Shown here: positions 18,955-53,999 of the stretch, piece by piece
How the letters are laid out: every line of letters starts with the position of its first letter
Numbering within the stretch: position 1 is the stretch's first letter
Source: Rhytidiadelphus loreus
Taxonomy: Eukaryota; Streptophyta; Bryopsida; Hypnales; Hylocomiaceae
NCBI GenBank assembly: GCA_947034895.1
Contig: OX344763.1
Location: 63,321,093 to 63,385,092, forward strand
DNA: 64,000 bases
Reading direction: 5' to 3'
Translations under genes and position numbers: made by a program
The notes under the pieces: generated by a model
The model's database searches: none
Told to the model about the DNA's origin: nothing
The model's input: the letters and a program-made list of their open reading frames with translations, nothing else

Positions 18955-18966
18955 TGCATTGGTGGT
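18955..18966. repeat. Left target-site duplication of the giant insertion
   Basis: TGCATTGGTGGT is the last satellite sequence before the 32.66-kb insert. The same 12 bp are the first satellite sequence after it (51626-51637). Confidence 0.75.
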
Positions 18967-18974
18967 TTGGGCTG

Positions 18975-19008
18975 CTAGCATGTGAGCCTGTGAGTATGAG
19001 CCTGTGAG
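18975..19008 (+). repeat. Left imperfect terminal inverted repeat of the giant insertion
   Basis: Begins CTAGCATGTGAGCC. Ungapped comparison with the reverse complement of 51586-51619 gives 22 matches in 34, with both copies starting CTAGC and sharing TGAGCCT. It starts 8 bp inside the 12-bp duplication. Its right part overlaps the 14-bp minisatellite. Confidence 0.4.
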
Positions 19009-19037
19009 TATGAGCCTGTGAGTATGAGCCTGTGAGC
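18984..19037. repeat. 14-bp minisatellite GAGCCTGTGAGTAT
   Basis: Three full units and most of a fourth, nearly identical, immediately inside the left end of the giant insertion. Subterminal tandem repeats are common at transposon ends. Confidence 0.9.
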
Positions 19038-20967
19038 CTTTCATTTTTTTGGAAAAGAAAAGTGTGAGGAACCTATGACCGTAGATTTATGGAATTTTGA
19101 TAATCCAAAAAAGTCAGCTCATTTATTCAAATTTACTTGTTTTTTGATAAGAGACTTCATTGCAATAAGTAAAAGTGGTCCATTTAGAATGAAATGACGT
19201 TATTAAAAATTAAAAAATAAAATAAATGACACTCCATATGTAGCCATAAAACACACAAATCCAATCATAATGGAAATCCATATATAGTAGTTCGACATAT
19301 GAGATATATCTATCTCATCAGTCTAAGTTGCAGTGGACTCAGTAGCTGAATCTTCATTGGTCGAGGATTCTAAAGTCTCTCTACCCTCAGATGCTGATCC
19401 ATCTATAAATTGTAACACATTGAGAGCATATGTATCTTTACTACGTTTTGGTTTATGACAACCAAAATCCGCAAAGGCTGATGCCATGTGCTCTGCATAG
19501 GGTGGAAGATCAAAACTCTTTTCTGGACTGTAGAAAAGACTTTGTTTGTTCAGTATCATATCTGATGATGTTAATCCTCGATGGCTGCAATTGGATATGA
19601 TAGAATGTTAGATTTGTAAAATACAAAGATGCAAATAAAAGAAAATACTAAAAGAAAATGCAAACTTACTTACTGAATTTTCCCCTTTGAGCAAATTTTC
19701 GAGGCATGTGAGCCCCAAATTCGTCACTTGGAACTCATTGTTTTCTTTTTTTTAGTTTATTACAAATTAAGGCATAAAGTAGTACAAAAAGCCCAAAAAA
19801 GAGTGTAGAACCAAAATAGGTATGTCACGTACCAGTATAGCATTTGGTCATAAATAGCCTTTTACCCATAGATTACCCATAAAACCCACTTGTATATAGG
19901 TTAGAACCCGTAATTAGTGGAAAACAATAGGGCTACTGGGAACTTACCCAAAATAGCCCAAAACCTAGTGCATGTGACCAGGATAGGCTAAATTAAGTCT
20001 TAGGAGAGTGGGGGAGGTCTCCACATAAATCTCCAAAGATAGGTTCTAGTTTCCCCATTCCACCGACGAAACATTAGGAATCCAATTTGTTAGCTTGCAG
20101 GTGTCGCTTGTCCCAGACAGGCCGCATGGAGGAATCCACAGCCGCCGGATGGTGTTCTCGGATCTGGAACATGTCGGGACATCCACGGCAAAACCCATTC
20201 GCCCAGATTCCCTCACATGTGAAAGATTCCCTGACTGCTGGTGATTCAACCGAAGTCAGTTTTCACCTCGCCACCAACTATGTGCCAGAATAGCCTAAGA
20301 TTTGGCACGTGGCTTGGGGGACTCCATGAGAGGTTCCCCAAAAAGTCTCGGTTTTTTCTGATCTCCAAAGGATCTTTTTCCGAGCAGTCAACCGCCAAAG
20401 GCCACGTTGGGAAATTCATAGAAAATACCCAGGCCGCGGTAAAATCTCACTAAAAATTAGACTAGCATCTTTTATGTTAATAACGCGCCCCAACAAAATT
20501 CATGGAGTTCCAATAGCGGGAAGTAGCCGAAACTGACAACATCCCCCCAATTAATATTTACGGCAGGATCTTTGCGGGGTTGACCGGCGTCCTGGGAGCG
20601 TACGAAGTCGGAACGAAGACATCAAGGAGCCTTTTCTTACTCCCTAGAGCCTCCCCAACAACCCTAGCTAGTTACCCAAGCCACAAGAGGTAAACCCCAA
20701 AAGTTAGGTTTTTACCCTTTTAATTGGCTCCAGTTGGCACTAGTTTCCGAGGGTTTTTTGGTGATAGAAATAGGGGGTAGGGGTCCCTTAGGCTAAAAAT
20801 GGAATTCTGAAGCCATTGGCGCAATCCATTTGCAATTCCGAGCTAAACTCCAAAAGTTAAAAACTAGGACCAACGTAAAATCCAAGATTAGGTGAAAATC
20901 TCAAAGTTGGATGAAAATCCGGATGGATGAGGTTACTCGTCGAGGGGGGGAGTGGGCCCTTGGAAAC

Positions 20968-20977
20968 CTATAAAAGG
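20968..20977 (+). promoter_or_regulatory. TATA-like box CTATAAAAGG
   Basis: A consensus plant TATA box followed by a pyrimidine-rich stretch (CTTCTCTCTCCC) about 20 bp downstream, where transcription would start. It lies in the GC-rich insert. No clear open frame follows it. Confidence 0.4.
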
Positions 20978-21405
20978 GGGCCCTTCTCTCTCCCAAAACA
21001 CCCCCAATACTTGTTTTGGGTCCGTGGGTCCAAGTTATCTTGGAATTTTTGGCGTTTAGGCCAAAAAACCTCTACGGTGTTTTTGGAGCACTTTTGGCTC
21101 TCGTTGTTTTTCTATTTGCAGCTTTTAAAGGTCCTTGGAGTCCTTCTTCTCGTACGTATGTACTTTGTGAGTTTTCTTTGGCTTTCTTTTGGTCCCATTT
21201 GAAGAGTCTTTGGTGAAGTTTATCTTGTGTCGTGCACTAACCCCAGAGTAACCCCCCACCGTACCTTGGCGATGCCGCTTTGGGGGGCCTTTGGTGCATA
21301 AGTCCTTTAACATTATCATCTTGCGTGTACGTGTGCCTTGGAAGTAAGTGCTAACCATAGTAACCCCCTTCTTTGTTGTTGACAAGTGGACCCACCCTTC
21401 GGGGG

Positions 21406-21560
21406 ACGGCGAAGCTTTGACCCTGTGACCCCTTAGTCCTAAAGAGTGTGTTAAAACGAGTCCTAGACGGCGGAGCTTTGAACCCCAATCCATTGCAAGT
21501 CCTAAAGTCGGTGTTAAAACCGATTCTACGGCGAAGCTTTGGACCCCGGTAGGTCTAAAT
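21406..21560. repeat. 61-bp tandem repeat with ACGGCGAAGCTTTGA
   Basis: ACGGCGRAGCTTTGR occurs at 21406, 21467 and 21528, 61 bp apart, each followed by similar GTCCTAAAG and GTTAAAAC stretches. A further isolated copy lies near 21691. A perfect hairpin TCCCAAGA-TCT-TCTTGGGA follows near 21574-21592. Confidence 0.75.
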
Positions 21561-21859
21561 TCCAAAGTTTAGTTCCCAAGATCTTCTTGGGAAAAATTAA
21601 AGTTTAGTTCCCAAGATACCCCTAGGTAGTAGAAACGCGGAAGAAACCCCCCGCCATGAGATAGATTGGTCAACATCCAAGTTCTTTCCCCCACGGCGAA
21701 GCTTTGACTTCAACACATCAAAATTAGTCTAGCCTCTTGGTTTACCTTGACCATAATCTGTAACGTCCGGTTTAGTTTTTAGTTAAGTGGGTTCCCATAC
21801 GGGAACCCGAGGTTAGGAAAGGAGTGTAAGGCCAGGGCCAGCCAACCAGGGCCAGCTAG

Positions 21860-22185
21860 GACCCCAGCAGCGGGCAACCCAGCCAGCCGGGCGACCAGCA
21901 GCGGGCGACCCAGCAGCGGGCAATCCAGACAGCGGGCGACCCAACAGCGGGCACCCAGCAGCGGGCTACGGGGGAGGGGGGCCAGGGCTTCGGGGAGATT
22001 GGGCAGGGCTTCGGGGAGATTGGCCCAGGGCTTTGGGGAGATTGGGCCAGGGCTTTGGGGAGATTGGGCCAGGGCTTTGGGGAAAGGGGGGGGGGGTCCA
22101 AGGGTTTCGGGGGGGGGGGAAGGGAAAGAGAAATCATAAGGGGGGGGCGAGGGGAAATCAAAACAAAACATACAAAAGGAGGGGG
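21860..22185. repeat. GC- and G-rich tandem repeats
   Basis: Left part: repeated CAGCAGCGGGC units of about 13-15 bp (21890-21970). Middle: four to five near-identical 21-22-bp units of the form GGGCTTTGGGGAGATTGGGC (21978-22085). Right part: uninterrupted G tracts of 7-10. The long Pro-rich frames on the minus strand are products of this composition. The G tracts could form quadruplexes. Confidence 0.8.
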
Positions 22186-22949
22186 GGGAAAAGAAAAAAA
22201 TACAAACTCCAAGCGGCGCCCTGCAAACCACATCCTCCACCTCTCAAACCAAACCTCATACAATGATGACAAAATTAGGAAGGGGGTAGTTATAGGAGAG
22301 GAAGGAGGGAGAGACGATAAATAGTGTTGCGTCATAGGATTAGGTAGGAAATCTCCAAAGCTTCTTGCCACCATTAGGAAAGAGATTAGGATGACACCAA
22401 AATGACGACGTAAGAGAATAGGTGACTCTTCCATTAGATTAGCGTCATATGGTGTAAGGCCTCATTTAAGGGGTTGGTAGGAATAGTGTTGAAGGAAAAG
22501 AAAAAGAGATAAGGAGAAAGGAAGGGCCCATTACGGGTCTTAGAGTGTACTCCTTCGCCAAAGACTAAGCCGTAGGCAGTTTACTACTTCAACCTACATG
22601 TCGACTATGGAATATGAGCACGCGGCCGGAGGTATGGAGGAAAAAGTCGCGCATGCCAACTTCGATCAGATGAGTCAGTAAATTAGCCCCCAGTGCTTTT
22701 TTTTTCCTTTTGATTTGTGCTAAATTCTGTTAAGAGGTGGTCAATGTCGATTAGCAATTAGGAATTAGACTACAAAACAAGGTAGAACAGGATAGGATAG
22801 GACTAGGGATTAGTAAACCGTTAGGGTCAAAATTCAACCAAGAAGTTAAAAATTAGATGAGGACAAAATAATCCAGTTAGGAGTTAAGGTTAAAATAGCC
22901 AATCAAAATTACCTTAAGTAATAACGACATAGGGTCAAAGGTAGAACGT

Positions 22950-23320
22950 AAAAAGATAGTCTAATTAGGAAAAAACTAAATTAGATTAGAGGATTAAATT
23001 AGAAAGATAAAGTAAATTAGATAAATTAAATTAGGAGACAAATTAGGAAAAAAGACAAATTAATTTAGAAAATTAGATTAGGAGATAAATTAGGAAAAAA
23101 GATAAATTAATTTAGAAGATTAAATTAGGAGATAAATTAGATAAATTAAATTAGGAAAAAAGATAAATTAATTTAGAAGATTAAATTAGGAGATAAATTA
23201 GATAGATTAAATTAGGAGATAAATTAGATAAATTAAATTAGGAAAAAAGATAAATCAATTTAGAGGATTAAATTAGGAGATAAATTAGATAAATTAAATT
23301 AGGGAAAAAGATAACTTAGA
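22950..23320. repeat. AT-rich tandem repeat of about 61 bp
   Basis: Reiterated GATTAAATTAGGAGATAAAT and AGGAAAAAAGATAAATTAAT blocks, several copies with small changes. It has no coding capacity. Confidence 0.75.
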
Positions 23321-26300
23321 TTAGGAAAAAAGCCCAATCAACTTAGGAAACCATAGAAGGGACTTAGGTAATCCCTCCTCAGTCTTAGGAAGGGTCAGTT
23401 AGCCTCAGATTCCCATAGATTAGAATAGATTCGGTAGTAGTTCGTATAGGCTGCCGTTAGGGGACGGTTAGCCCGAACTATTCCCTCGCCAATGGGGGCA
23501 ACCCCATTGTCACCTGCGGAAACTAGGAACTTAGTAAAGAAGATCCATTGCTTGGAAGGCACAATGGACCGACGCTTAGTCACCCGTTAGGTTAGAATTT
23601 AGTTAACCCCTAGAACCTGGTTGTGTCCGATTAATTACCAAGGGTGGGTAATTAAGCGCCCACAAGGCACCACTATCATTTCATCCGAATCATGTGTTTT
23701 TAGTGTTGGTGGTTTAGATGGGGCCTTCATCGAATCTGGAGTAGGCTTCCTCATGGGTTTGAGGAAAGCATTGAAAATGTCAATGTTCTCCTCCAAAGCT
23801 ACAATGTGGCGGCCTATTCCACAGCAAGCAGTAATTGATGCACCTGAAGTTAAGGTAATATAAAATATTAGTGAAATTTATGATTTTCAAAAAACCACAA
23901 AAAATGGACAATAATGAAATTGAATAATCACCTGCTGATGCGGTGCAATCGAGAACCAAATCTCCTTCAACGGTTGTAGCTTCAATGAGGAGTTGAAAAA
24001 ACCGAGGATCATTTTCACGTGCCCCCCGCCATGGTTTTCCATCATTCATTGCCATGTCATCCTCTTTGGTGTAGTTCATCAACATGTCATCTCGACAGAT
24101 GTCCACACCAGCACTCTTCATTAACGATGTGCGTTTGAAAGTGAAGTTGGACTTCCCTTTCTTGCCAAAGTCCTTGACGAGGAGGGTGATTCCAAACCTT
24201 TATGTTTGCAATTATGGAAACAAAATATACATTATAAACAAATGTAACATAACCATTAGAAAAAGACAGTTAGAACTTCAAGAGCCATGTTGGTTGAATT
24301 TACCGTAGAACTAGTGTCCAAAGCCAAAGTCAAGTGGAGACGATTCATGCCCCACCACTCCTTCTTCTTCACCATGCGGTAAGTTTCACACAATCCTGCA
24401 ATATCGCCCCTAACATCAGCGCTCCATGAATAAAATACAATCATGCATCCATGGTCTTATAGATGCATGAATGCAAATTTAAATGCCGCTTGAAGAGCCT
24501 CATTCTCCAAGTCAGCGTTCCAAGTCGGCACCTTTGTTGTTGGAGAAGACAGTCCCGGTATAGGCAAGTTCTCCGGGCAGTCAAAAAAGATTAGGTCCAC
24601 TCCAAGCCTAGCATTTGGTACTCCGTAAAACATGCGAGGCTTCCCCACCAACAACTGCAAGCACGCAATACTTTATCCAATCAATAAACCTTGCAAACAA
24701 TGTTCATGTTCTGAAATTCATGTATGACATTGAAATTTGGAATTCCTCCAGAATTTACCTTCTTCCAGAAGTCCATGACCTCTCTATACCAAGTTGGTGT
24801 CTCAGTCTCCATGTCTTCGACGAGGTCCTCAATTGAGATATTCATGATCAAGTCTTCACTCTTGTCCAACTCATCTTGCCAAGAACAATGACTTGTATCC
24901 TTTGAGTAATGACATCCTCCGTCAACTGCGTGAGTGCCTTCCTCTTGACTCCACTTTGAGCTCCACCTTCCATGTGAGAGGGTTGGTCCACTATCGATGA
25001 TGCTGGAACGATGGCACCACCGTCATCCTTCTTCTTGCCTTTGGCTAGGAGCTTTTCTTCTTGGTTTGGATTGTACATACAGTCCGCAGAACTACGGTCC
25101 AGCCAACTGAAAAGGAATGGAGGAAGATCGGTCCATCCAATTGCTCCTTTTGCCTCGAGTTCATGCTTGAAGTAACTGCAGCGAAAAACAGACACACATA
25201 TTTTAGAACATATTTATATTGGAGAAGCAAAGTACATGGCTTCTTGTGTTACCATGTTAGAGGTAGAGGCATTAGAAAAAGAAATATATAACCCAAATTC
25301 AGTAAGGGAATTGAAGCCATCAAATCCTCCAACTAAAAGACAAGTGATCAAATCTACTGAATTTGCATGTACTTGGCATGAAACAAGTACAAGAAACCTA
25401 CCAGAAAAGAACTCTTCGAACCGCTTGTTTGGATCCATCAAAATTCATGAAAGAGTCACTTTTCTTGAAATAGTTGGCTCCTCTAAGAACCGCCAAGAAT
25501 CCTTGATCCCAGATTTTCCTTCTCCATCCTTCTATGTAATCTGCCAGGAACTCAGGCTGCTGAGGAACTTTCATGTTGATGATGATATTGTCTTGCCTGA
25601 CCACGTCTTCAAAGTACTCCACAACTGCATCTTCAATCTGTGGAAACAAAAGGGCAATTAGAATTTCAGAGTTGCAGAGCCTAGTTCTAGAATTTTGATT
25701 ATTTAACAGTGAGGAATTGAATTACAAAAATTACTACATAGAAGGATGAAGAACACCACACAAATGAGCACTTACCCCAGCGTACCATATACATTTGTTC
25801 AAGAAAGGCCCGAACAACGTCTCAGATACAAGTTGTGGCGGAAACCTCCTAGCATCACGAGATGGCAATGAAGAGTTCTACCACTTGAGGAACTTGATCT
25901 TGTGAAATGGAGTTGTGTTGCAAGTGGCCACTAGTTGGAGTTTTTCCAGAGTCATCTCTGGAACCTCATTAGTGCTCCAATGCTTTTCCACCTATAGAAG
26001 ATGAAATTTGCACTTGCAATAAGAATTAAGACTTCAATATACAATAATACCTTCAAGTCAATTTCAAAACACATCACTTACTTCAGCTAGGAACTCAGGT
26101 CCGTGAGCGGGATTGGCCACGGTTACCAACTTGATCATTTTCACATACAACTTTGTATTCTTTACTTTGGCTCCAATTCTCATGGCATTTGCGACACCTT
26201 CATGACTCTTCTCTTCAAATGGAATGACCTCGTTGTACCTTCTCATTGCAGCATTTGCTGCTTGTGTGATCTCTTGCTGCGACAATCAAATGTTTCATGA

Positions 26301-27331
26301 ATTACAAAACAAATTTGGTAATGGATACAGAAAATATAGTAGAATAATTGATAAAGGCAAAAGAGTACAAAGTTGTTCTCACCCGAAAAACAAATGACAT
26401 GAAGACCTCCACCGGCATGGAGTACCAAGTTTTCTTCACTTTTAAAGCTCCACAACGTTTGACCTCTGATGGTCTGAGCATCTCATTGAACCTTTCCATA
26501 GGGAAAAGACCATACTTCTGAACACGATACAATATGTGTACCAGATTAGTCTTCACATGGGAGTCTTCTGTTGATCTGCAATTCATACAAGGACACTAAG
26601 TCATAACTCAACAATACATTTGGAAGTCATACAAAACAAACGAAGACTGAAAAGACAAAGGAAAAAATGAAATGCAGTACTCACTTATTTATGTCATGCA
26701 TGACCAATTCAATCTTCCCCTTCGTATCCAACACGATGGAGTCAACGCTACAATGCCAATCTTGTGAGGTGGAATGAAGTCTGGCAATATGGTTCATCCA
26801 TGCCAAGCGTCGGTGATTCCCATCACAAACGTAGAACTTCAAGTTCTTCAAGAAACTGAGCATAGCCATAGACTCCACATACTTGTTGAAGATGTCATTC
26901 TTTTCCTTCCATAGCCGGCCCCATGCATCCATTTCCTCTTTTGTGAACTCCACGCTTTCTCCGGCCTCATTTGTAGTCGTCACATAGAATACTGCTGCTC
27001 CATCTCGATATCTGTTGACAAATTCTTGCTCAAGCTTGATAAGGTTGCAAGAGAGGGTTGGCCACACCATGGGCATCAGCACAAGTCTGCAAAGTGGAAT
27101 TTGCAGCCCAAACAAATTCTTTGGCTTCATTCTAAGGGATGCGATTGTAGCCACCAAGTCTACCTTCTGGAGTCTTCGGAGCTCATCTTCCAACAACTCC
27201 TTCTCTTTGTCTTCCACAAAGTCTTCTTCACCTTCACGTTCATCTCCAATCTCTGGTTGCTCGGTGTCATCTGTTCTTGGAGTCTCTATAATTTGCTCCA
27301 CTTGTGATAAATTGACAGGGGACACATCCAT

Positions 27332-28411
27332 CTGAAAAAGGAAAATAGAAGATTCATCAAGATTGAACAAATTACAAAATTCGAATCAAATCCAAAATAA
27401 ATAAAAATTGCTTCAAAATAAAACAAAAAACAATAATATGAGCGTGAAAGTGCAGCAACATACTGGGAATAAAATATTTAGGATTATAAACAAAAATTTA
27501 TAGTCATAGGTACATTAGACATGCTAGGGTCTACATGATTATGACTAAAAGTTAATTCCAATCAAATGGAATCAATCAATGTCTACATCATCATCTTTAT
27601 CTGAACTCAAGAAACACTATATTCATTAATTTGGGAGTTTGGGACCCTCTCAAAATAATATATCTATTTAGATGCTAAAAATTGAATGTTGGATTTAGAC
27701 AATTTAGGTTGATATACACTAAATTCATTCATATCATTAGAGCAATTTCCATTAAAATGAGAGTTTTTTGAGTTATAGAGTCTTGCAATACATTTCATTC
27801 TTTGTAATAGCAATTTGTGATTCATATAAGTGAAGATCATTTCCTATCTTGAACACCAAGTCATGTCATCTGCGGTTGGTTGTAAAAGATCATTTTTCTC
27901 ATCCAAGCGGTCCGGGTTCGATTCCCATTGAATTCGTATGAGCGCATGACAAAAATACATGACTTGGTGTTGCTAAGTGAGCTTTGCAAGCAAAAAAGTT
28001 GTAACCTCCAACCGTCCCCCTATCCTAAATGTGACAAGTGCTTAACATGTTAACAAAATAAAAAGTGGGTATACCCACTACTTTTTTGGTTTTTATTCAA
28101 AGTAGAATTCCAAATGAAATATACACAATGTGAAATAAAAAAATGAATTGAATGAAAAATAGAGAAAACTGAGCACCATAATATATTACAAAAGATATGA
28201 ATACTAGATGTAAATGCATTATTTTTTCTAAACAAAAAACATACACTTCGAAAGATTTATGCATTAGCAAACATTAATAATATAAATTCAATCGCCCTAA
28301 AGAAATTCCACGTATTCTAATATTTAAATTCCATCAATTCTACAAAATATGACAATGTACTATAATATAATTAGGAAACATCCAACATACATACACACTT
28401 ATCATTAGATA
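27332..28411. other. AT-rich spacer between two minus-strand genes
   Basis: No gene is supported. It contains the tRNA-related fold-back element at 27852-27971 and otherwise AT-rich sequence. The right part is the 3' flank of the DUF7869-like gene. Confidence 0.5.
27852..27971 (+). mobile_element. tRNA-related fold-back element (SINE-like)
   Basis: A perfect 15-bp inverted repeat (AACACCAAGTCATGT at 27852-27866, its complement at 27957-27971) encloses a GGTTCGATTCC box B at 27915-27925 and an upstream TGCGGTTGGT stretch resembling box A, about 40 bp apart as in tRNA genes. No full cloverleaf forms: the T stem has only three good pairs and there is no acceptor stem next to it. I read it as a decayed tRNA-derived element, not a tRNA gene. 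Confidence 0.45.
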
Positions 28412-31251: not shown

Positions 31252-31339
31252 AGTACCTACACAGAAACAATGTGATTTACAGTTAGAAGACAAATCCCCA
31301 AATGTGCTTGTTTAATAAAATGAGCAGTTATTGAATTTA

Positions 31340-39315: not shown

Positions 39316-40845
39316 ATATGATGCGGAAATAATTGGTTGTGCAGAATGGACGTTCAAGTGCCAAAACTTGAAGCCTTCTTCAAGCAATCCCAACGCGAAA
39401 GAGAAGAAGACAATGGAGATGACATTGACAATGAGGGAGAATATTGGGAGTTCCAAAACCCCGAAAAAATGCAATATTGGAGTCTAAAGATGATTCCCTG
39501 GAAAAATCTGATCTGCTTCACATACACATATGTGGACAGTGAACCATACTATTTTGTCTCATTCGAAGAGAAGATCAAGGATATTGCTCCAGACACCGGG
39601 AATATTGTAAAAGTCCACTACGTGACGGCATTGTCTGGGGTTCCTGAGAAAGAACAATGTCATTTCACTTTCATTGTAGACTCTGCAAAAATTCCATTCA
39701 ACATCACGCCCTTTTTAGTTACGCTTGAGTCCACTGAGTATAGAGATGAGATTCCAGAGCTAGAAAAAAAGATAGACGATAATTTCTTCAGATCCACGGC
39801 TGGGAAGACGTTCACTGGGAAGACATTGTACAATAGACTGAGGAAGATGTTCACCGATTTCACTGTGCTAGCAGCAAAGCTGGAGTCCAAAAGAAAAGAA
39901 ATGGCACCCAGATCGGTATCACAGGATATCCCAAGTCAAGGAGGAGAAGGCTAGGGCTCATTGGGTACCCCCGGCACACAATCTAGCAGAGGAACAAGAA
40001 GAATCCTGAACAGCGCGACACCTCCGTCCGGACCAAGAAAGAATAATCTAGTGTCCAGTTCATCGAAGAAAGTTGCAAAGTTGACTGTGGATGTCTCCGC
40101 CAACGTTGAGCAAAGCTTCGCCTCTGAAGTGACCGATGTATCTGAGGCGCATGATCCAAAATGTACACACGATTACAAGAAATCGGCAGAGGCGTACAAA
40201 AACTACTGGGCAACATGTACTGATGCGTACATCTTCGAAATAGAAGAGAAGAAGTCGATCCATATTTCACAATTAATCACGGCACCAACAGAGATGAATA
40301 TTAGAAGCCACGAAGATCGACTGGCAACAGACATGTTGCATTTTCTTGTACATATACCTAACCATACTACGAAGCAGACTCTATGCGTGATGCCAACAAA
40401 TCAGGCACTAAAACCCAGTAAAGAGTCGTGGGAGGAAATAAAAAATGGGAAGTTCTACATTACTAATGGCCAACACAGCGTAATGGCTAGCAAGAAGATG
40501 GTGGACATGAATTTAGACGAGTCCATTATCAAAAACTTTTGACAGTGGGATTGCTACATGGTCTGGTCTCAAGATACTGCAAAACTGAGGGCCATCTCTG
40601 CCTACTATAACTGAGTAACCATTTCATAGCTATGAAGCCCTCCTAGTCAACAAATATCCTAGGAGCCAGAACTGTTTGGAAGGCCATGGGAAGACCTAGA
40701 AACCCGAAAGATGCCATTCCAGTTGGAACGCAATCGAATGCCCGGAGAAATGCAAAGAACAAAGCAAACAAAGCAAAATTCCAGGTAACTAACAAACAAC
40801 CTAGTGGCATGTACTGAGAATGTCGAATTCATACTTGGTAGTAAT

Positions 40846-40864
40846 TTAGATCGACTCGACCTAA
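40846..40864. promoter_or_regulatory. Palindromic site in intron 1
   Basis: TTAGATCGACTCGACCTAA, one mismatch from the consensus, inside the 103-bp intron 40785-40887 and 23 bp before the acceptor. Confidence 0.75.
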
Positions 40865-42251
40865 ATGTGATTGTATGATGTTCACAGGAATTCGTGAAGG
40901 CTATGAACAAGCGATTCGCAATGTTGGATGTTGTCAAGTCGTAGAGAGCATCCCGTGGGAAGGATGCTGAGGAGAAGCTACAGATTAGGAATGACCACAA
41001 AATCATTACCACTCCAGATCCTATATTCGCATTGTGGAGCGAAGTCATTTCCAATAACGCTCACGGCGAACTCATAGACCCTGACACTCTTGTCAAATTT
41101 AATAAGAAGTCAGGGTAGAAGTCGGAGTCAGGGAATCTGACGCATGAATTCTTTAAGTGGCTTGGCAACCTCTCGTATGACGACATGAGCAAATTAGCGA
41201 AGCACATTCTTCACCAGGATAAAGTGAAGAGAAAGCACAGTCACCCAAAGGTGACTATCAAACAAGCTTCTTCCGTTTTGGAAAGTTGTTATATATGCAA
41301 GGAGTGGGTGGAGCGACGAAAGAGGAAGTACCTCGTAAAGAAGGAGTTGAACAATATTGACCCGAGCCTTGGCTTACTGAACGCCTTCAATGAACTCAAC
41401 ACCCAGAAATGGAGAGAGTTCAAAAAGAGTCGTTCCATTATAAGAGCGACAATGAATGTTCTGCTGGAGCAAACGGGGAATGACTATCGAAAAGAGGCAA
41501 AGCAGATGAAGTCACGGAATAAGAAGACAGAGGTAATTTCCCCCTACGCAGTAGAGTTCTTCAAGGTCTTTTTGGCTCAGCGTGCGGCATTTGTGAAGCC
41601 CATTGCTGTGGCGCATTACAGACCATATGACATCAACAAGGATGAGCACTCGAATTGGCCTGTACGTGCGTGGACGGAGAGCACTTTGTTTGGAATAAAA
41701 TTCAGCATATTAGATTTTTGATACACTCTAGTTGTGCTCAACAAGACCAAATGCACTCCAACGATGCCGTATTTCTTTGCGGTTATGAATTCGTTTCAGG
41801 AAATGAAGAAGCCATTGCTTCATGAAATTCAGACCTAGCTGTTCATCTGTTCCGATTTGGTTGAGCAAACTCAAGCTCTGCACTATATACAGAGCAATGA
41901 GGTCCTTAAGACATACCACATGGATTACGCGGACTACGTGCCAGCAAAACATAAACGAATGGGAGATTATTCCATGAGTAATAGCAAGGCAGTGGAGAAA
42001 GTGTACTTGACCTTTCTGCAGCATTCGGATAAAGCAACAATCATTCCCCCCAAACCGGCGTACCATGCTCCCAACACTGACATCTTCTATAAGCCGCGAG
42101 CATACAACGAGCTGGAGTACCGCATACACAATACTGAGTTGCGGATGGAGTTCTACATAAACATCCTTAGGCAGTACTCAATTGGTGGTAGGGGTGTCAT
42201 GTCATTGTTTGCAGGGACGAAATTCACTTGCGTTGCAATGGTAAGTTTCAT

Positions 42252-42409
42252 TTAGGTTGAGTTGACCTGATTATTGTGTGGATGATATATTGTGATTTGA
42301 ATTCTTACGTTGATTCATTCAAATAGCAACGACATCGAGTTATGCAATTGCTTGTTGATTATTTGAATTAGTGTGTAGTCTTAGTGATATTTAGGTCGTG
42401 ACGACCTAA
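42252..42409. promoter_or_regulatory. Two palindromic sites in intron 2
   Basis: TTAGGTTGAGTTGACCTGA at 42252-42270 and TTAGGTCGTGACGACCTAA at 42391-42409. The second is symmetric although its centre differs from the consensus (CGTGACG), so symmetry rather than the exact core has been kept. Confidence 0.75.
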
Positions 42410-43586
42410 ATTACATGAATCCTCTTCACTAAAATCTAGTATTTGAAATACTTGTGCAGATGCTAGGGCTAAATGTCTACGCTGTTGGGACATTTAACGA
42501 GTCGGATTCCTGAACAGCAATTGTCAATCTGGGAAAATCGTTAGACAAAAATGATTTTCTACCAGGGATATACTTCGTGGACGAGATGTACCACAGTAGG
42601 AAACCTAGTGGTCCTTCAACGCCATTATCATCTAAGAGAAGGCACAAGTCTGCGTGGAATTTGCCACAGACTCCTTCATTGCAACCAGGTCCATCACAAC
42701 GAGAGAGTGTCAATTTAGACACTGACGACGACGATGACAATTCAGATGACTTTGCGCTCGAGGAGGATTACACTCCCATTAATTTGTCCCAGAATGTGGG
42801 AACATTGTCAACGTCGTTGGGGCAACCGGTTCGCGTGGAAATGATTGTGACACAACCATCAAGCATGCCACCACCCGTACACCATGGGAAGCGGAGGAGG
42901 TCTGCCTTCGACCAGGATGACTACGGTTCGCAAATTGCCCAGTTGCGAGCAAAGAAGATTCAAGATAGGGCATCAAATCTTGCAATGTATGCGGAGACGA
43001 ATGTACGATTAGACTAGCTCCAAAATCTAATTTGCGATTATACAATGCGGTCGGGTAACCAATTTGAAGCCATCATGAACAGGATAAGTGGTGTAGTTCC
43101 TCTAGCAATGATAGAGCCCGCGCGGATTGCTTTGCAATTGATGATCCAGAGTCACTCTTCTAATCCGATGAATGTTGGAGGGGTCTCTACTCTAGATGCT
43201 GATCAAGCTCATCGCAAGCTGATGAATCTGAATCCAACACGACCACCTACAAAAGCCGACGTTCCTCCGCCGCAGCCCTTGAGCAACATTAGTCCAGATA
43301 TTCTACCGCCTCTTCCCCCAACCGACCTCGTCCCAGATGTTCCTTCGCCGCTTCCCGCAAGCAACATTGTCCTAGATACTCCTACGCCACCACCCGAGAT
43401 TGAATTCAAGGCTACAAGAACAAGGGACACGATTCTATCACCTCAAGTGATTCCTTTGATCCCTGTTGATTTGGATGTCGTTGTGGATGCAACAACAATG
43501 AATGTCGACCAGCAAATTGTCCATCCTAATGAACTAGATGAAACTGCAGGTTGATCCAAAAAGTCACTCAGTGACATTGTGTAGTT

Positions 43587-43605
43587 TCAGATTGGCTCGA
43601 CCTGA
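43587..43605. promoter_or_regulatory. Palindromic site in intron 3
   Basis: TCAGATTGGCTCGACCTGA, a decayed copy with the right half intact. Confidence 0.6.
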
Positions 43606-44261
43606 TTTGTATTATACGTAGGTGTAGTTTTTTAATCACAGACAAAAACTATTTTTTGGTGAATCAAAACTCTTAGTGAACGGAACGATGAAGTTCTTAA
43701 TTTTCATCAATATGTCTTGTGTTGTATTTTCTGTTTTCTGCGGAATTAATATATGATGTTCTTACATTTTCCTCTTTCTAAAATTTCTGAATGGCAGGCC
43801 TAGTTGATGTTGATGTTGTGTTTTCCTCGTCCAATCTCGATCCAAAAGAAGAGCATGATGCTCTTCATGTTGATCATGATGATATTTTGGATGTCCCCCA
43901 CGAAGTCACGGAGTTGCCAGCCCTTGAAGCTAAAATCCAACCCTCAACAGAACCGGAATTTGACAATGATGATTTATCCTTTGCTGAGATTTTACCCAAC
44001 TAGGGAGGTCGCAATTCAACAGTCTCCAATGAAGGTGTCTGATGTCGTCGAAATGTTGCGGGACTCAAATCCTAATTAGGTATTACTTCTGTGACTATAA
44101 ATTTCTATTGCAAAAAACTCAATTGTTATGTTCCGTGCAATGGTCAAAGTTCATCTTGTTTTTCAATTTTAATTTAAATTCATTTTGTATTTTGGTGTTT
44201 GGTTCGTAAATGTGTCAGTGCAGGCTAGTAACTGGCTGCACATTTGTATCTTTGATAGCAG

Positions 44262-45058
44262 GCTCCGGATCCTTCACGTTTGTGTGGAGAGCCGTCAAGG
44301 GAGGGAACTATTCCATCCAGGTCCGGGGTGATGGAGAAGTGGCTCAACGTCATCCTTGACCTGAATGGGATTTTATGTGCGACTACAGATTTGAAATCGA
44401 AGGGCTACTATAGTCACGTACTAGATCCTTCACAGGGCCAATCGGCCACAAATCCCACCATTCTGGAGTCAAAAGAAGTTCATGTGAGGCCGCACTGTTC
44501 TCAGTTCCTCAATGAATTAGGAAAGATAGCTACTATTTCAGTGTGGAGCTCCAGGGTTATGGCCAACACTAAACGTGTAGTCAACATCTTTTCGATGGTC
44601 TGGAGAGCCCCATACTTGTACTTGCTCAAGACACCTGCACGACTCTGAAGTGCAGGGATGGCTCTAGAAGGGTCACTACTTTCAAAGGGCTGGGTACGAA
44701 TAAGGACCTCTTCCTCAAGAACTTGAGTGCCCTGTTCAATGGCTCACGAGGAAATTTTACGTCGGATAATACTATCATAGTGGACGACAGTCCAAATAAG
44801 CAAATCATGAACAAGAGCAAGAATGTAGTTCTCCCAGACACTTGGACAAACAAGGGAAATGGTCCCAAGGATACGTTCCTCTTGGATGTCCTACTGCCAT
44901 GGTTGAGGCGCCTTCACTGCAGTCGTGAAATTGGCCTAAAATCATTTAGGGCTAATAGATCGGCAAAAATTGGTCGGCAAATGCTATGCGACGAGCGCAA
45001 TAGGCAAGAGTATAACAGGCTCATGAACGTGGTTAGAATGTCTAAGACTTTGACATGA
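44262..45058 (+). pseudogene. FCP1/NIF-type HAD phosphatase domain, frameshifted
   Basis: After an AG acceptor at 44260-44261 the frame reads VILDLNGILC (HAD motif I, usually hhhDxDxT; here DLNGI, the variant seen in LDLNG-type FCP1 proteins), then VRPHCSQFLNELG and ISVWSSR (motif II serine). A one-base loss near 44597 shifts the frame, which continues as FDGLESPILVLAQD and later IIVDDSPNKQIMN (motif III/IV acid pair) to TGA at 45056. FCP1 family members dephosphorylate the RNA polymerase II tail or related phosphoserines; with Asn in the second motif I position, catalysis is doubtful. The previous gene's last exon ends TAG|GTATTA at 44079 in phase 0 and this exon starts in phase 0, so a CAG-to-TAG change would make this the C-terminal domain of the same protein. 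Confidence 0.65.
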
Positions 45059-45072
45059 GTTGTCCCTTCATG

Positions 45073-45310
45073 TTTAGGTCGAATCAACGTATTAGACAAT
45101 TATTTTAGGACCACTTCAAGGACTGTGAAGATTAGCTCGAGTCGACCTCTTTCGAGGGCTGTCAACCTTAGCTAGAGTGAAACTATTTTATAGATAGTAG
45201 TCGATTGTAGTTATTTTTGACTTCCTTGTACATATTGTGATGTTTTTAATAAAATTGGAAAGCTTTTCAATTTCAAAATGTCTTTGTCTTTTTGTTTGGG
45301 TCGATCTCAT
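45073..45310. promoter_or_regulatory. Decayed palindromic sites in the 3' flank
   Basis: TTAGGTCGAATCAACGTAT at 45073-45091, TTAGCTCGAGTCGACCTCT at 45132-45150, and a half site GGGTCGATCTCA at 45299-45310. None is intact. They are the rightmost copies I found. Confidence 0.5.
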
Positions 45311-45422
45311 TTGCTTATGGCTCTATTATTTGAATACTTCTCAATTCTCATGATGTAATGTTTGCATTGTGGATCCTCTGTTTCTTCATTATGAATATTT
45401 TCTGAATGTTTTGTTTTTACAG

Positions 45423-46034
45423 AGCATTCGTATCTTCACGTCCTCAGATCCGAATGCAAGTCTTGCATGCGCTGCGTCGGTTGATTCAATTTGGGAATAT
45501 GGACAGAATGCAATTCTAAGCATTAGGAACTTTCTATGCTCTGTTGCAACAGCCAATTCCACTATGGATTTCTCTATGAAGCCGGTGGATGACGATGTTG
45601 TTGACAGTCTGCCAAGTAGAACTCCTCGTCCACCGAAATCATGCTCCCCTTCTCTCCTTCGATCTAGACCTCCATTCACGTCTCAAGTGTCGTTGACTGC
45701 TTCAGATAGAGTGCCACAAAGAAGATTGTACAAAGAAGATGGAACCTCATACTTCCCTATGTTGCAGGAAGAGGTGCCTGGAAAAACTATCGAAAATGTG
45801 GTCGGCCCTCCTTCTCCTAGACCACCACATCCATGAGACTGTGTTAGGTCCTTAGGCATGCGAAAGTCGAAGACACACGATGGAATACTGCCAAATCGGC
45901 GCATACCCCCATTTTCGGACGCATGGGATCGAAAGCACATTCAACTCCAGAAGCAACAGATGCTGCGAGAATACAAAAACGAGACAATGGATATAGCCGG
46001 GGTCCAGAGATCTTTCGGGCGATGGAAATGTTGA
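45423..46034 (+). pseudogene. Hypothetical Ser/Pro-rich exon
   Basis: Starts after a strong TTTTTACAG acceptor with SIRIFTSSDPNASLACAAS, continues through a Pro/Ser-rich region, passes a TGA at 45834-45836 and continues in frame with basic, polar sequence (RKHIQLQKQQMLREYKNE) to TGA at 46032-46034. I do not recognise it. Downstream position and strand suggest it belongs to the same cargo transcription unit as the FCP1-like domain or to a separate gene whose first exon I could not place. Confidence 0.4.
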
Positions 46035-46745
46035 AGAGTAAAACACACATGTAGTATCTGTTCATATTGTTTACGCATGGTCTATACATTCAAAGAAGTT
46101 GTGCAGTTACTGTATAGAACTCAAAGTAGTGCATTCATGGTGCTCTGCTATTTTGTAGCTAATGAACGAACTTAAATTGTTGATAGCACTTGGAATTACA
46201 TATGTTCTAAGGCAACGAGTGGAGTATTTTGCGCTACTGCCTTCTCTAGTATGCAAAGTAATCGTTAAAAGAAGGTGTTGAAATCACTTTATAGAGAATC
46301 CGGAGGGGATATGAGGGTTTGGTTCTTGGATTTCCGGACTACTCCTTCGCAGAGTACTTCTCTACTGTTGACTTTAGTGGTTCTAAGACCTTGTGGTGAT
46401 GGACTCAATTACCATGATATACTCTTTGCACACTTCAAAATCACTACATAGTATGGGAAATGGGGATGCTGTACTTCACTGCCTTGAATGAAATGATAGG
46501 CAATGCTTCTTATCCCGCACATTTTACTATGTATTCATCCATTACGTGTATATTTTATGGAAATCTTCTTCTGTTGATGGTGCATAACACAATCACTGCA
46601 TTGTTCTATGTAATATATTGTTTGGGATGCCATTCAATTGCTTTCGTCATGATCATTGAGAAAAAAAGCATCTTTGTTTTAGGTTTGAATGTCTCCACAA
46701 ATCCGCAACATGTTCAAAATAGACTCCCATTTCATTGGAAACCTC
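46035..46745. other. Intergenic stretch, nothing identified
   Basis: Short frames only (for example 46460-46777), hydrophobic and without family resemblance. It lies between convergent coding segments. Confidence 0.5.
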
Positions 46746-47249
46746 TCATTTTAATGAATATAGTGTTAAGAGAATGAGCACAACCTCACGTGGGCCTTGA
46801 CTAGTGCTACAAGTGCATTGACAAGTGTCCAGAAACATTGGACCATCAATTGAAGAAGATATCTCACTATCCGAGCTGTATTTAGTCTCTGAACTCTCTG
46901 GGGAGAACATAGGTGTCCTATGTTGGCGTCGCCATTTCCTAAGCCAAGGAATAGAATGGGAATGCCCTTCAAGGTCACTGACATGACTATGCTCAGAATG
47001 CTCAAGAGCATCTGCAGCACGATCAGCAGCATCCATAATATCATCAAAGCTTACCAGGTCTTCATTTGCAGACTCTTCCTCCTTTGAATCGTTGGAGACC
47101 TCCATCGTGGTATTTGCGGGAGTGAAAGGCTGAGATGGGCCTGGAGCTTGAGACACTGGGGCACTGATAGGTAGTCTACTTGGTCCAGATTCATGCTGAC
47201 CAACTCCAACATGTGCATAACAATGACATTTCTTTAAATCAGAAGTCAA
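46746..47249 (-). CDS. Hypothetical Ser/Glu-rich ORF
   Basis: An uninterrupted frame of about 165 codons. It contains a Pro/Ser-rich segment (SAPVSQAPGPSQPFTPANTT), an acidic segment (SKEEESANEDLVSFDDIMDAADRAADALE), a His-rich patch (HSEHSHVSDLEGHSHS), a basic patch (WLRKWRRQHR) and a Ser/Glu tail. The composition is like a disordered nuclear protein tail. An AG acceptor next to the start (AAAG|AAATGTC) suggests it may be an exon whose upstream part is missing. No stop or frameshift is seen, unlike its neighbours. Confidence 0.35.
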   Translation of the reverse strand: MTSDLKKCHCYAHVGVGQHESGPSRLPISAPVSQAPGPSQPFTPANTTMEVSNDSKEEESANEDLVSFDDIMDAADRAADALEHSEHSHVSDLEGHSHSIPWLRKWRRQHRTPMFSPESSETKYSSDSEISSSIDGPMFLDTCQCTCSTSQGPREVVLILLTLYSLK

Positions 47250-47362
47250 TTATGAAGTTGTACACAAGCCTTGGGCTTCACATACAATGTATAATCATCT
47301 AAGGCTGAAACAAAATTCACAATCAGCTTGTGGACCAATAATCCGATAATTCCATAGTAGAC

Positions 47363-50300
47363 ATGCCTTACATTGTACACGCCGTTTCACCTAATTCACC
47401 TAGTGACATTTCTCCAGTCTTTCCAAAGCATGTAGTACTTCGTGAAGTGAAACTTGAGAAATTAGATGCAATCATAGAATTGCCTAGTGAATCGGAAGGA
47501 GAGTCTCCTAACTTCATTCTCTATAAGAAAACAAGCTCCAGTCAAAATGCATCTGTGAAAACGACTCTTGTAAATTCAGTATGCAGTACCCCTTCACTAA
47601 GTCAGTCGAAGTCTTTGTCCTCACGGCCTCCATTGCATCCACCTCTAGCCGATAGAGTAAGTATCATGGAGTGTTTGAATAGACTAGCGACCATGCATAG
47701 ATCTCGAAATGAATTGTCTATGATGGATCTGAATGTTGTGCAACACCATCATGTGCAATTCCTTCCACCAGTATTCAATGGTGATGTTATCTTCGAGTTG
47801 CCTCCATGCTGATCATCTTCCTCTTCTTCTGCAGCCAAGAACTTAGAAGGGATGGACAAGCGCTATGATGAGCATCCTTGGTGCAAAGTTGTGACCACAA
47901 ACATCAACAACTCTGATAACCTTAAGTTTCGTAAATCATACTGCGCTGGTCATCTTGCTTGTGTGAATTCAAAGTGCGATTACTTGACTAGGGCTAGAAA
48001 ACGCAATGAAGTAGAGTGGACCGGGTATACAACCTTTCCTTTTGCAGTAGGGGATACTACTCCCAAAGATTGCACATTAGTTTGTAAGCTTTGCAAAGTT
48101 ACACCTACGTGTCTGAGCACATGCAATGCTAGAATTTACTATTGCTGTAGTGAAAATCCGAAAATGAGTAGGGCGGCTATTCATATCGGAGATCATTGTC
48201 ACCCCGTAGCAAAAGGCATGTATAGAGACTCTGCAGAAAAGATTTGTGGACTCATTGTAGAGCAGGTGGCCAAAACACCTCTCGCCACCAACTCCGCAAT
48301 TGTTCTCTCTGCTAGCAAAGATTTCCTAATAACCTATTTGTTTCACAATGAAGAGGGAGAGAAGAAGATGTTGAAAGGACAGGAACAAGAAGAGGTCATG
48401 GACCGCTTTGAGTACTTAAGCAGTCCAAACATCCGTAATGTCATATCTTCTTTCCGTTCAAACAATCGCGGAGGCGTTATCGACAATATTATGACCATAA
48501 AGAAAGAGGCAAAGTTCAAATTCATTCACGACAACGTTTTCCCTAAACAAGGGAAGGAGAAGGTGTACATTTTCAAGATGCTTACAAAAGGACTCGGGAG
48601 TGGAGTGGATCTGGTGAAGCGCATGCAATCCGGAGGGAATCTACAAAATGCGTGGATGATGTTCGACCACGTGAAGCGTGTGAAGGACTGGACCACGATG
48701 GCTTGCCACGTGTATGACCCTAAGTACAAAAAGGTGATGACCATTTCCACATGCGATATGCAATCAGAAGATATTGAGATTCAAGTGTTTTTTTGGATAT
48801 ACTTGAATGCTGTCATGTCACGACATGGAATAGAAAACCCAAACTTCAAGGGGTTTATGGCCAATAGTGCTATGGCCAATTGGAATGCAGTTCGTATCAT
48901 CTATGGTAGTGGCTCTGCCAATCAGAAAATGGAAAATTGGGAGTGGACTTGTTTGTTGCATTGGAGTTCGTCACTTCAAAAACACACACAGAAGTATATC
49001 AAGGAAGCATTCCAACAGCAATACACTTTATTATGTAAACAATACAAAGATGCAAAGAATATGGAGGACGCAAAGACCAAATACCTAGCAATTCGGTCAT
49101 GGTGGTTATCTTCTGGAGCTACCACAGAAGATGCACTTCATCACTTGGACCATTGGCTTGCATTTTGGCATTTCCGTTATAGGCAGTGGGGAGGCTTCAT
49201 GCAAATGGTAAGGTCCATGCACTATTGTAATTGTTTTCTTGTTTTTGCATTGGGAAAAAAATGTTATATTTTGTTGGTCTTCTATGTTTTATGGTATGTA
49301 ACTGTGAGTTTTCTCTAATTCGTTAAGAAGGCCTAGGATTGCAAATTTGAAGAGATCTAGCTTCTTTTTTTATTTAATTTAATTTAAGTGTGCGTCATCT
49401 CATGTACCCCATATATGAACTCGATGGTTTTCAAATCACAATGGTTCTTGCTTGTACTCTTTTCCATTGAATGTGACTTTTTTTTTTTGGGAGGGGGAGC
49501 ATTTTCAGGGATTCAGTTTGGAGGAGATGGCTGACTTGTCTTCATGCAACTTGTCGGAAACAATGCATAACAAGTAGCTTCAAATGTCTGGAAATCAAGG
49601 TAACAATTTGTTTGATGCAACTTGCGACGATAGTATCCGTGCATGGATGCAGATGATAAATTATCGCGCTTACTTGAAGGGACATGCATCTGGCTCTGGT
49701 CCATCAAAGGGGGAGTTGAAATTGAGAGCTGCAAAACGGAGCGGAGATCCCAAGAAAATAGCAGAGGCGCTAAATACACTACCCGGATTTGAAGGTGTTG
49801 GAAGTCGCATACCCCATTTAGAAGGAGAAGAAATATTTGGAAGCACAAAGAGGAAGTTAGATGTACCCATTGGTGATGCCAGAGACTCACATAGACCAGA
49901 TAAAGTAAATTTCTCTCAACCTTATGTTTGAACGAGGTCTACAACCGCGTTTGTAAACTCTGCTGAGGAAAAGTATACACACGCTCAAGTGAACACTTCA
50001 CCGCATGTGTCCATTGCGTTTGAAAGTGACTACAACACATCAAAGTGGCACATTGCGAGGATCAGCCACAAATCAAACGCAAAATGTCATGCTTAACAAC
50101 GGGAGTTTGATATCAAGTGCATTGCCAGAATTTCAAAAGGATGGAAGGGAACCCCTGCTCCCACCTATCGTGGGAGAAAAGAAGATTACGAGACTAAGCG
50201 CAAAGTGTTGGCGGACTTTTGGTTCTGTGCAGATGACATTGAACGATGTGTGAAGGGGACCAAGTGCAAGTGGGTTATAGATTGGCCGGATGTGCTAGAA

Positions 50301-50897
50301 GTATGGCCTGTTCTAACCGGGACAGACTTGAGCCAAGAGGAGACTTTATTCCTACAATATGTTGGATTTAGACTCCAAGAGCGTCCTACGTTGTCTCCTC
50401 GTTGTCTATTCAATATGTCCAACGTTTTCAAAAGCGTATTTTATGATCAACCACCTCCACATGATGCACACATGTATCCAACGATTCGAAATAGTCGAAG
50501 CATACGGCAAATCTCAACAGTACCAACTATAGAACAACGAAACAAGTGGGAGAGTGCTGGCAATGTGAAAGGACTAATACTTGGAGTAACATTGTTGCCT
50601 TTTCCAGGATTAGGTGCAATTGTGTCTCTAGAGACCAGAAGTGATCATAATCAAAATGTGTATCGAATTACAGTGGGTATGTACCTCTTGTGCACATGCC
50701 CGGACTTTACCAACATGTGTGTTTCAGCTATTGGAGGTCATCAACAATATGTAAATTGCAAGCACTTATACTACCTATTTCGGTATTTCTGCAAGATGGA
50801 CATCCATGAGGACAAATTCATTCATGCACCAAGTTTTAGCTTCAATGAATTGAAGCTTCTTCTTGTAAAAGCAGGGATCATCACAGTTCTAGAGTAA
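47363..50897 (+). pseudogene. Mutator-like (MULE) transposase with SWIM zinc finger, decayed
   Basis: Exon 1 47363-49207 and exon 2 49509-50897 join in phase (CAAATG|GTAAGG ... TTTCAG|GGATTC). N-terminus Ser/Pro-rich; then a Cys/His zinc finger (CAGHLACVNSKCDYL, CKLCKVTPTC, HIGDHCHP). The central domain has KVMTISTCDMQSEDIEIQ, KGFMANSAMANWNAVRIIYG, TCLLHWSSSLQKHT and WLAFWHFRYRQWGGFMQM, a MULE-type transposase core. A C-terminal SWIM finger (CTCPDF ... CKHLYYLF) binds zinc and DNA. MULE transposases cut at terminal inverted repeats and integrate with 8-11 bp duplications. Breaks: TGA 47810-47812, TAG 49575-49577, TGA 49929-49931, TAA 50094-50096. From memory, relatives have Asp where this copy has Asn in FMANSA, so a catalytic residue may be lost too. 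It lies close to the right end of the giant insertion and is the best candidate for its mobiliser. Confidence 0.75.
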
Positions 50898-51585
50898 TAA
50901 TGGTTACAGTAGCAAGTAGTATTACATTCTTATTGTATGAACTCCCATTTGGTACAATTTATGTGGTGTGAAGCATATGAATTAGAAAACGTCCATGCAT
51001 TTTACCCAATTTGGAGGTATATCCCACCAGAAAAAAAATTGCAAATGAAATTATGAATGGCTAAACCATTAACACAAACCAATCATCCCAAGGTGTTCAT
51101 ACGAATATGAAAACCTTTTTAGCCATGTTTTTGTCACTATCCCTTTTATTTATTTATTTTTTTGGCTTCCTTTTTTTTCTGCGCTTCCCCCCTTTTTTTT
51201 TGGGACTTCATTTCATTTTTTTGGCTTTCCTGTACCATTCCTTCTGTGTATTGTTCATTGTGTTTTTGTTGTTAACCCTACATTTGTTTTTTTAAATATT
51301 CTTTGCTTAATACCTTATATTAAAATCTCTAGCAAAATTTGGAAGTGGGTAAATATGTGAACAATGTTAGGGGGAAATAAATGCTTTATTATACACAAAG
51401 GTTTAAGGATTTTTTCCAACAAGAAATGGACCTACGTAGGTCGTAGTCATAATTCTTATAATCCACGGTAATAGGGGTAGCAGTCATAGGTCCCCTAATT
51501 TTTTTGATATAACAAAAAAATTGACAAGTTTTGATTTCTTTTTCAAACAATATGTGTTTTCAATATAAAAGTCTAAAAAACCTAA
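50898..51585. other. AT-rich 3' region of the giant insertion
   Basis: No gene. Poly-T-rich runs at 51140-51290 give hydrophobic frames without meaning. The right end of the insertion follows. Confidence 0.5.
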
Positions 51586-51619
51586 CTCCAAGGCTCACCG
51601 CTCCAAGCTTGCACGCTAG
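51586..51619 (-). repeat. Right imperfect terminal inverted repeat of the giant insertion
   Basis: Read on the minus strand it starts CTAGCGTGCAAGC and shares 22 of 34 bases, ungapped, with 18975-19008. It starts 6 bp inside the right 12-bp duplication. Confidence 0.4.
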
Positions 51620-51625
51620 TGTCGT

Positions 51626-51637
51626 TGCATTGGTGGT
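51626..51637. repeat. Right target-site duplication of the giant insertion
   Basis: TGCATTGGTGGT, identical to 18955-18966. It is followed by 21 bp of satellite (51638-51658) that continue the monomer exactly, up to the 3.4-kb element. Confidence 0.75.
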
Positions 51638-53959: not shown

Positions 53960-53999
53960 ATAGTTAGACTGATAGTGTTTTCAATTATCTTTTTGTTAG

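What the first reader, a model, noticed from the sequence alone, without database searches (positions are those of the whole stretch)
18955..51637. A 32.66-kb segment is a single giant insertion in a satellite array with a 12-bp target duplication
Satellite block 1 stops at 18966 with TGCATTGGTGGT. The same 12 bp restart the satellite at 51626. Removing 18967-51637 and, 21 bp further on, 51659-55064 joins the flanks into a monomer of exactly 175 bp (106 + 21 + 48), the array's own period. Two chance breakpoints would rarely fall in phase. Imperfect inverted ends (22/34) lie 6-8 bp inside the duplications, and a MULE transposase gene lies near the right end. Together these fit a giant Mutator-like element with six cargo or passenger genes, far larger than ordinary MULEs.
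Basis: partly seen in the sequence, partly recalled or inferred. Interest (0 to 1): 0.88.

Follow-up and report, generated by a model that had tools for sequence, protein, structure and literature searches.

The report
Nested giant transposons with ParB-like genes
The 32.7-kb block is a large Mutator-like jumping gene that landed in satellite DNA and was later invaded by a second giant jumping gene; its relatives in the same genome carry a ParB-like gene beside repeated palindromes, which may be a self-recognition system.

Summary
The outer boundaries are real, but the 32.66 kb is not one unit with six cargo genes. Both termini pair at 16 places among the scored matches. Eight of nine fully read relatives measure 13.6-15 kb. 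The window copy is that element plus a 3,958-bp LTR-type insertion and a 19,155-bp second DNA transposon with its own inverted repeats and 4-bp duplication. That second site is empty in the 12 other copies where it could be read. The copy also lacks about 4.9 kb of its centre, and its transposase is broken. The 'cargo genes' lie in the second transposon. The transposase resembles the IS256/Mutator clan by fold only. New here: an opposite-strand gene predicted to have a ParB-N fold and, in 9 of 9 fully read relatives, 3-5 conserved 16-bp palindromes (136 exact sites genome-wide, 0 for the reversed control). The 19-kb family has a different palindrome array (110 versus 0). I propose ParB-parS-like self-recognition; binding is untested.

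The parts
18957..18966 (.). left copy of the 10-bp target site duplication CATTGGTGGT (satellite sequence)
18967..51627 (+). outer element as it now stands (32,661 bp), termini TTGGGCTGCTAGC... (family: CAGGGTTGCTAGC...) and ...GCTAGTGTCGTTG
51628..51637 (.). right copy of the 10-bp target site duplication
18967..19706 (+). element core, segment 1 (left terminus, tandem 14-bp subterminal repeat)
19707..23664 (.). nested insertion N1, 3,958 bp, TG...CA ends, 5-bp duplication AGGCA (19702-19706 / 23665-23669); solo-LTR-like
23665..27612 (-). element core, segment 2 with the opposite-strand accessory gene
24259..25213 (-). remains of the downstream exons of the accessory gene (candidate methyltransferase part; interrupted and shortened here; identity as methyltransferase inferred, not shown)
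26681..27385 (-). accessory ORF, 234 aa, predicted ParB-N fold
27613..46767 (.). nested insertion N2, 19,155 bp, second giant DNA transposon: 24/28 terminal inverted repeats (AACACTATATTCATTAA...), duplication AAGA (27609-27612 / 46768-46771)
29846..31212 (-). N2 putative transposase gene, DUF7869 (PF25273) family by homologues; split over two ORFs here, one 852-aa ORF in copy L062/L063
31342..31860 (.). N2 palindrome cluster A (5 sites AGGTCGANTCGACCT, up to 1 mismatch), 5' of the DUF7869 gene
38848..39071 (.). N2 palindrome cluster B (3 sites), 5' of the opposite-strand ORFs
39322..43554 (+). N2 opposite-strand ORFs (the ORF 39955-40542 carries an NGQHS..A motif that resembles the ParB motif; not significant)
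44573..45058 (+). N2 ORF with NIF / FCP1-like phosphatase domain (PF03031)
46768..51627 (+). element core, segment 3 (right terminus and transposase gene); about 4.9 kb of the family's centre (measured on E5) is missing at 47336/47340
47342..49318 (+). transposase gene, N-terminal and catalytic part (IS256/Mutator-clan fold in the relative P0001); aspartate of FMADSA replaced by asparagine here
49419..50897 (+). transposase gene, C-terminal exon region with a CTCPDF...CKHLYYLF zinc-knuckle-like motif (motif read by eye); interrupted here
51659..55059 (.). separate insertion N3 in the satellite, 3,401 bp, TG...CA ends, 5-bp duplication GTACG / ATACG (one mismatch); solo-LTR-like with GC-rich ORFs

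Best explanation
Shown: a member of a DNA transposon family whose uninterrupted copies measure 13.6-15 kb inserted into a 175/176-bp satellite array with a 10-bp target duplication. It was then invaded by an LTR-type element (N1) and by a 19,155-bp DNA transposon of another family (N2). It lacks about 4.9 kb of the family's centre and its transposase is broken, leaving today's 32,661-bp composite. Inferred: relatives move by cut-and-paste, using a DDE transposase of the IS256/Mutator clan. On the opposite strand they carry an accessory gene with an exon predicted to have a ParB-N fold. Upstream of that exon lie 3-5 copies of a 16-bp palindrome. The most likely working is that the ParB-like protein recognises these palindromes on its own element and marks or shields the region between the two divergent genes, much as ParB works on parS or VANC on its motifs. 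N2 seems to run a parallel arrangement with a different palindrome. The confidence below is for the anatomy; for the ParB-palindrome mechanism I give about 0.35-0.4.
Confidence: 0.85

Rival explanations
1. One giant Mutator-like element that carries six cargo genes and moved as a 32.66-kb unit.
For: Outer termini and duplication are genuine; other copies reach 39 and 54 kb between paired ends with exact 10-bp duplications, so long copies exist.
Against: N2 has its own TIR and TSD, its site is empty in 12 of 12 copies read, and it recurs alone elsewhere. N1 likewise is absent from the 14 copies read. The contents of the 39- and 54-kb copies were read only at their ends and, in the 39-kb copy, at the N2 site.
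Confidence: 0.03
2. The palindromes are real functional sites, but bound by another protein: the transposase's own zinc-finger domain or a VANC-like anti-silencing factor, not the ParB-like protein.
Against: The sites lie near the accessory gene and not at the termini, where a transposase would be expected to bind. Canonical ParB sites are 16-bp palindromes (recalled).
Confidence: 0.3
3. The palindromes are by-products of an expanding, hairpin-forming central repeat with no bound protein.
For: The centre holds internal repeats in E5 and its close relatives E1, E4 and E6. A few bases on each side of the 16-mer are also partly conserved.
Against: Information content falls from 1.3-2.0 bits in the 16-bp core to mostly under 1 bit beyond the nearest three to four flanking bases, over 23 sites from six copies (sites were picked by similarity to the core, which favours this). 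Exact 16-mers lie beside ParB-like exons only 66% identical to the window's.
Confidence: 0.1
4. The outer element belongs to a superfamily of its own rather than to Mutator.
For: PF10551 finds 30 MULE matches in this genome, none in the window element. Profile comparison with five of them is not significant. Terminal repeats are poor.
Against: 10-bp duplication within the MULE range of 8-11 bp (PMC3903597, passages). ISCth4 tops the fold search. The non-significant alignment still pairs the second aspartate and the CxxH motif.
Confidence: 0.2

Closest known systems
Mutator-like elements (MULEs) of plants, with nested insertions
   Same: 8-11 bp duplication range; transposase with D, D and CxxH-type motifs (motif pattern recalled); nested TEs are common: 36% of 530 maize and 41% of 476 rice candidate coding-MULEs (PMC3903597, passages)
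   Different: 13.6-15 kb, poor terminal repeats, transposase not recognised by PF10551, opposite-strand ParB-like gene and palindrome array
Sola1-1_Ec32 of the brown alga Ectocarpus (PMC12477816, passages)
   Same: giant DNA transposon (21.5 kb) with a ParB-like gene on the strand opposite the transposase; [quoted passage not shown]
   Different: that gene also has a DNA methyltransferase domain, not demonstrated here; another superfamily; no palindromic binding sites are mentioned in the passages that I read
Vandal/VANC anti-silencing system of Arabidopsis MULEs (PMC13317346, passages)
   Same: element-encoded protein that recognises short motifs in non-coding parts of its own family
   Different: no ParB fold described in those passages; motifs here are 16-bp palindromes in one central block
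Bacterial ParB-parS (recalled; folds compared)
   Same: predicted ParB-N fold; 16-bp palindrome in several copies near the gene
   Different: eukaryotic transposon; no ParA was sought; binding, CTP use and spreading untested
ISCth4 (IS256 family) transposase structure
   Same: best Foldseek matches to the transposase model
   Different: a bacterial transposase; 11-13% identity in the alignment

Membership tests
Mutator-like elements (MULE) | target duplication of 8-11 bp | tested here: met
   10 of 14 copies exactly 10 bp, 3 more near-exact, 1 none
Mutator-like elements (MULE) | terminal inverted repeats over 75% identical (criterion in PMC3903597; MULEs without TIRs also exist, PMC2528002, passages) | tested here: not met
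   16-19 of the first 24 bases (67-79%) in 8 copies, over 75% in 2 of them; 13 of 24 in the window copy
Mutator-like elements (MULE) | MULE transposase domain PF10551 | tested here: not met
   no match in the window ORFs scanned or in 8 homologues; genome search gives 30 matches, none in the window element
Mutator-like elements (MULE) | significant profile similarity to MULE transposases of the same genome | tested here: inconclusive
   hhalign probability 0.3%, yet the second aspartate and CxxH align; the MULE profile had only 5 sequences
IS256/Mutator clan | RNase H-like DDE transposase fold of the ISCth4 kind | tested here: inconclusive
ParB-like proteins (core accessory gene) | ParB-N fold | tested here: met
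ParB-like proteins (core accessory gene) | sequence match to a ParB family model | tested here: not met
   none in Pfam (E5 exon at E <= 10; window ORF), none in NCBIfam at E <= 1, none in PDB sequences
ParB-like proteins (core accessory gene) | sequence-specific, CTP-dependent DNA binding | not testable with these tools
   needs protein
Sola1 (for N2) | 4-bp target duplication (recalled for Sola1) | tested here: met
   AAGA, CTCT, CAAG, AACT and TTAT exact; one copy 3 of 4
Sola1 (for N2) | transposase related to known Sola1 | not tested
   no Sola1 reference sequence in hand; the N2 protein is DUF7869
LTR retrotransposon, solo LTR (N1, N3) | TG...CA ends with a 5-bp duplication | tested here: met
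   N1 AGGCA exact; N3 4 of 5
LTR retrotransposon, solo LTR (N1, N3) | a full-length relative with the same sequence as paired LTRs | not tested
   no internal LTR pair within N1 or N3; the genome was not searched for one

The most novel reading that the evidence does not exclude
Giant eukaryotic DNA transposons carry ParB-parS-like systems: a ParB-fold protein and an array of element-specific palindromes (16 bp in the outer family) between the divergent genes, by which the element recognises and epigenetically sets itself apart from host DNA. At least two families with different transposases in this one genome (a Mutator-clan-like element and the 19-kb DUF7869 element) would have such a system, each with its own palindrome.
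Probability: 0.35. Interest if true: 0.85.

Novelty: new variant of a known kind. Interest (0 to 1): 0.68.

Why it matters
It corrects an apparent record-size single transposon to a nested pair of large ones, with base-level proof by empty sites. It also turns a published suggestion, that ParB-like transposon proteins bind and mark their own element (PMC12477816), into a direct test: candidate binding sites are now named for two families, CAGTCGGATCCGACTG (136 exact genomic copies) and TNAGGTCGANTCGACCTNA (110). If true, it would show how large selfish elements tell self from host in eukaryotes with bacterial-type parts.

Full report
WHAT IS IN THE SEQUENCE. The window is G000:C3:63321093-63385092 of a 407-Mb genome. 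The 175/176-bp satellite array stops at 18966 and goes on at 51638 after a repeated 10 bp, and the joined flanks keep the array's spacing. For 16 of the 40 scored left matches, window included, a scored right match lies on the same contig in the same orientation within 60 kb. Eight spans are 13.6-14.7 kb; the others are 18.3, 20.5, 20.5, 25.6, 32.7 (the window), 39.2, 52.0 and 54.0 kb.

THE ENDS AND THE DUPLICATION. Reading both ends shows a left terminus CAGGGTTGCTAGC and a right terminus GCTAGCGTCGTTG with few variants. Of 14 copies with both ends read (the window, E1-E5, E7-E13 and E15), 10 have an exact 10-bp flanking duplication, E12 has 9/10, E8 9/9, E1 8/10 and E9 none. Among 182 mismatched left/right pairings none reaches 9/10.

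WHAT THE 32.66 KB CONSISTS OF. Nine relatives were read in full. Seven have both ends and measure 13.6-14.8 kb, E6 is about 15.0 kb without its right end, and E9 is 18.3 kb with a 3.9-kb insertion of its own. Against them the window element splits into three core segments, 18967-19706, 23665-27612 and 46768-51627, separated by two blocks that none of the nine has at those places. N1 (19707-23664) has TG...CA ends and a 5-bp duplication AGGCA, no internal LTR pair, and a 68%-identical relative over 1.3 kb in E9's insertion. N2 (27613-46767) has 24/28 inverted termini starting AACACTATATTCATTAA and a 4-bp duplication AAGA. The N1 site is uninterrupted in 7 of 7 left loci; two of these are E7 and E9 again, so 14 distinct copies in all. 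The N2 site is uninterrupted in three further copies (E11, E12, E13), so in 12 of 12 where it was read; in a fourth, E10, the fetched stretch matched neither reference and was not counted. Relative to E5 the window copy also lacks about 4.9 kb of the centre, present in some length in all nine and at least in part in E10 and E11, and about 0.3 kb near 25062.

N2 IS A FAMILY OF ITS OWN. For 16 of the 18 closest left-end matches, window included, a right-end match pairs within 60 kb; 8 spans are 18.8-19.7 kb, the rest 22.9-54.1 kb. Target duplications are exact 4-mers in five of six copies checked: AAGA, CTCT, CAAG, AACT and TTAT, with one 3 of 4. A second copy, read in full, has one 852-aa ORF of the DUF7869 family on one strand, and on the other strand a set of ORFs including a NIF-type phosphatase domain.

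THE PALINDROMES. A scan for over-represented palindromes, not guided by any motif, led to CAGTCGGATCCGACTG. Each of the 9 fully read copies has 3-5 sites with at most 2 mismatches, 37 in all, in the fast-diverging centre, and 50 simulations of E5 give none. The window copy, which lacks that centre, has none. Over the nine copies the mismatch classes 0, 1, 2 and 3 hold 18, 15, 4 and 1 sites against 0, 0, 0.05 and 0.25 expected. At four mismatches there are 6 against 2.65, and at five 13 against 23.4. Information content is 1.3-2.0 bits in the core, 1.0-2.0 in the nearest three to four flanking bases and mostly under 1 beyond (sites were chosen by likeness to the core). The whole genome holds 136 exact sites and 0 of the reversed control. 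Only 50 sites were listed: 36 lie 0.8-3.0 kb from one of the 150 scored ParB-like exons, all 36 on its 5' side, over 21 exons, where about 0.4% would be expected at random. Of the other 14, 13 lie within 40 kb of a scored element end; one (C1:11168176) is near neither. This linkage partly reflects common descent of the element. The stronger point is that the 16-mer stays intact where its surroundings do not, including beside exons only 66% identical to the window's.

N2'S OWN PALINDROME. AGGTCGANTCGACCT occurs 10 times in the window's N2 and 15 times in the other copy (up to 1 mismatch). The main clusters are 5' of the DUF7869 gene and 5' of the opposite-strand ORFs. There are 0 hits in 50 simulations, 0 in 229 kb of other loci held and 0 in the window outside N2. 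Genome-wide the longer form TNAGGTCGANTCGACCTNA has 110 exact sites against 0 for the control, and 47 of the 50 listed lie within seven paired N2 copies; three do not.

HOW IT MOST LIKELY WORKS. Cut-and-paste by the DDE transposase is inferred from the family's ends, duplications and fold. Self-recognition by the ParB-like protein at its palindromes is my preferred but unproven mechanism (about 0.35-0.4). CpG observed/expected is higher and TpG+CpA lower in the palindrome block than in the rest of the element in 9 of 9 copies, which fits, but does not prove, local protection from methylation. A VANC-like or transposase-bound role of the same sites is the main rival.

VERDICT. The size record and the cargo do not. 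[quoted passage not shown] The ParB-like gene with its palindrome array, and a second palindrome array in another giant family of the same genome, are what deserve follow-up.

Noticed in passing
window 1677-3625, minus strand: ORFs left of the satellite read, to my eye, like another DDE-type transposase (WTNGCSGQFKS...SGHGKG motifs); Pfam gave nothing for the ORFs scanned.
   Followed up: partly
window 51659-55059: Insertion N3 in the satellite has TG...CA ends, GC about 0.56 and several long ORFs, but no paired LTRs.
   Followed up: partly
G000, N2 left-end matches: 22 further scored places share N2's first kilobase (or most of it) at only 72-78% identity, while most of the remaining right-end matches cover just about the last 45 bases: probably a second, related family with a different interior.
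   Followed up: no
G000:C4:71664088 and C4:71752762: Two right-end matches and two ParB-like exons with identical scores lie 88,674 bp apart in parallel, suggesting a recent segmental duplication that carries a whole element.
   Followed up: no
window 32913-32954 (inside N2): Short run of plant telomere-like TTTAGGG repeats, next to a segment that is inverted relative to the other N2 copy.
   Followed up: no
window 21863-22089 (inside N1): GC-rich tandem repeats of 15, 22, 44 and 46 bp periods.
   Followed up: no
window 55065-64000, satellite: The satellite monomer itself carries a recurrent GGCAA-N5-TTGCC inverted repeat (14 exact sites in this stretch).
   Followed up: no
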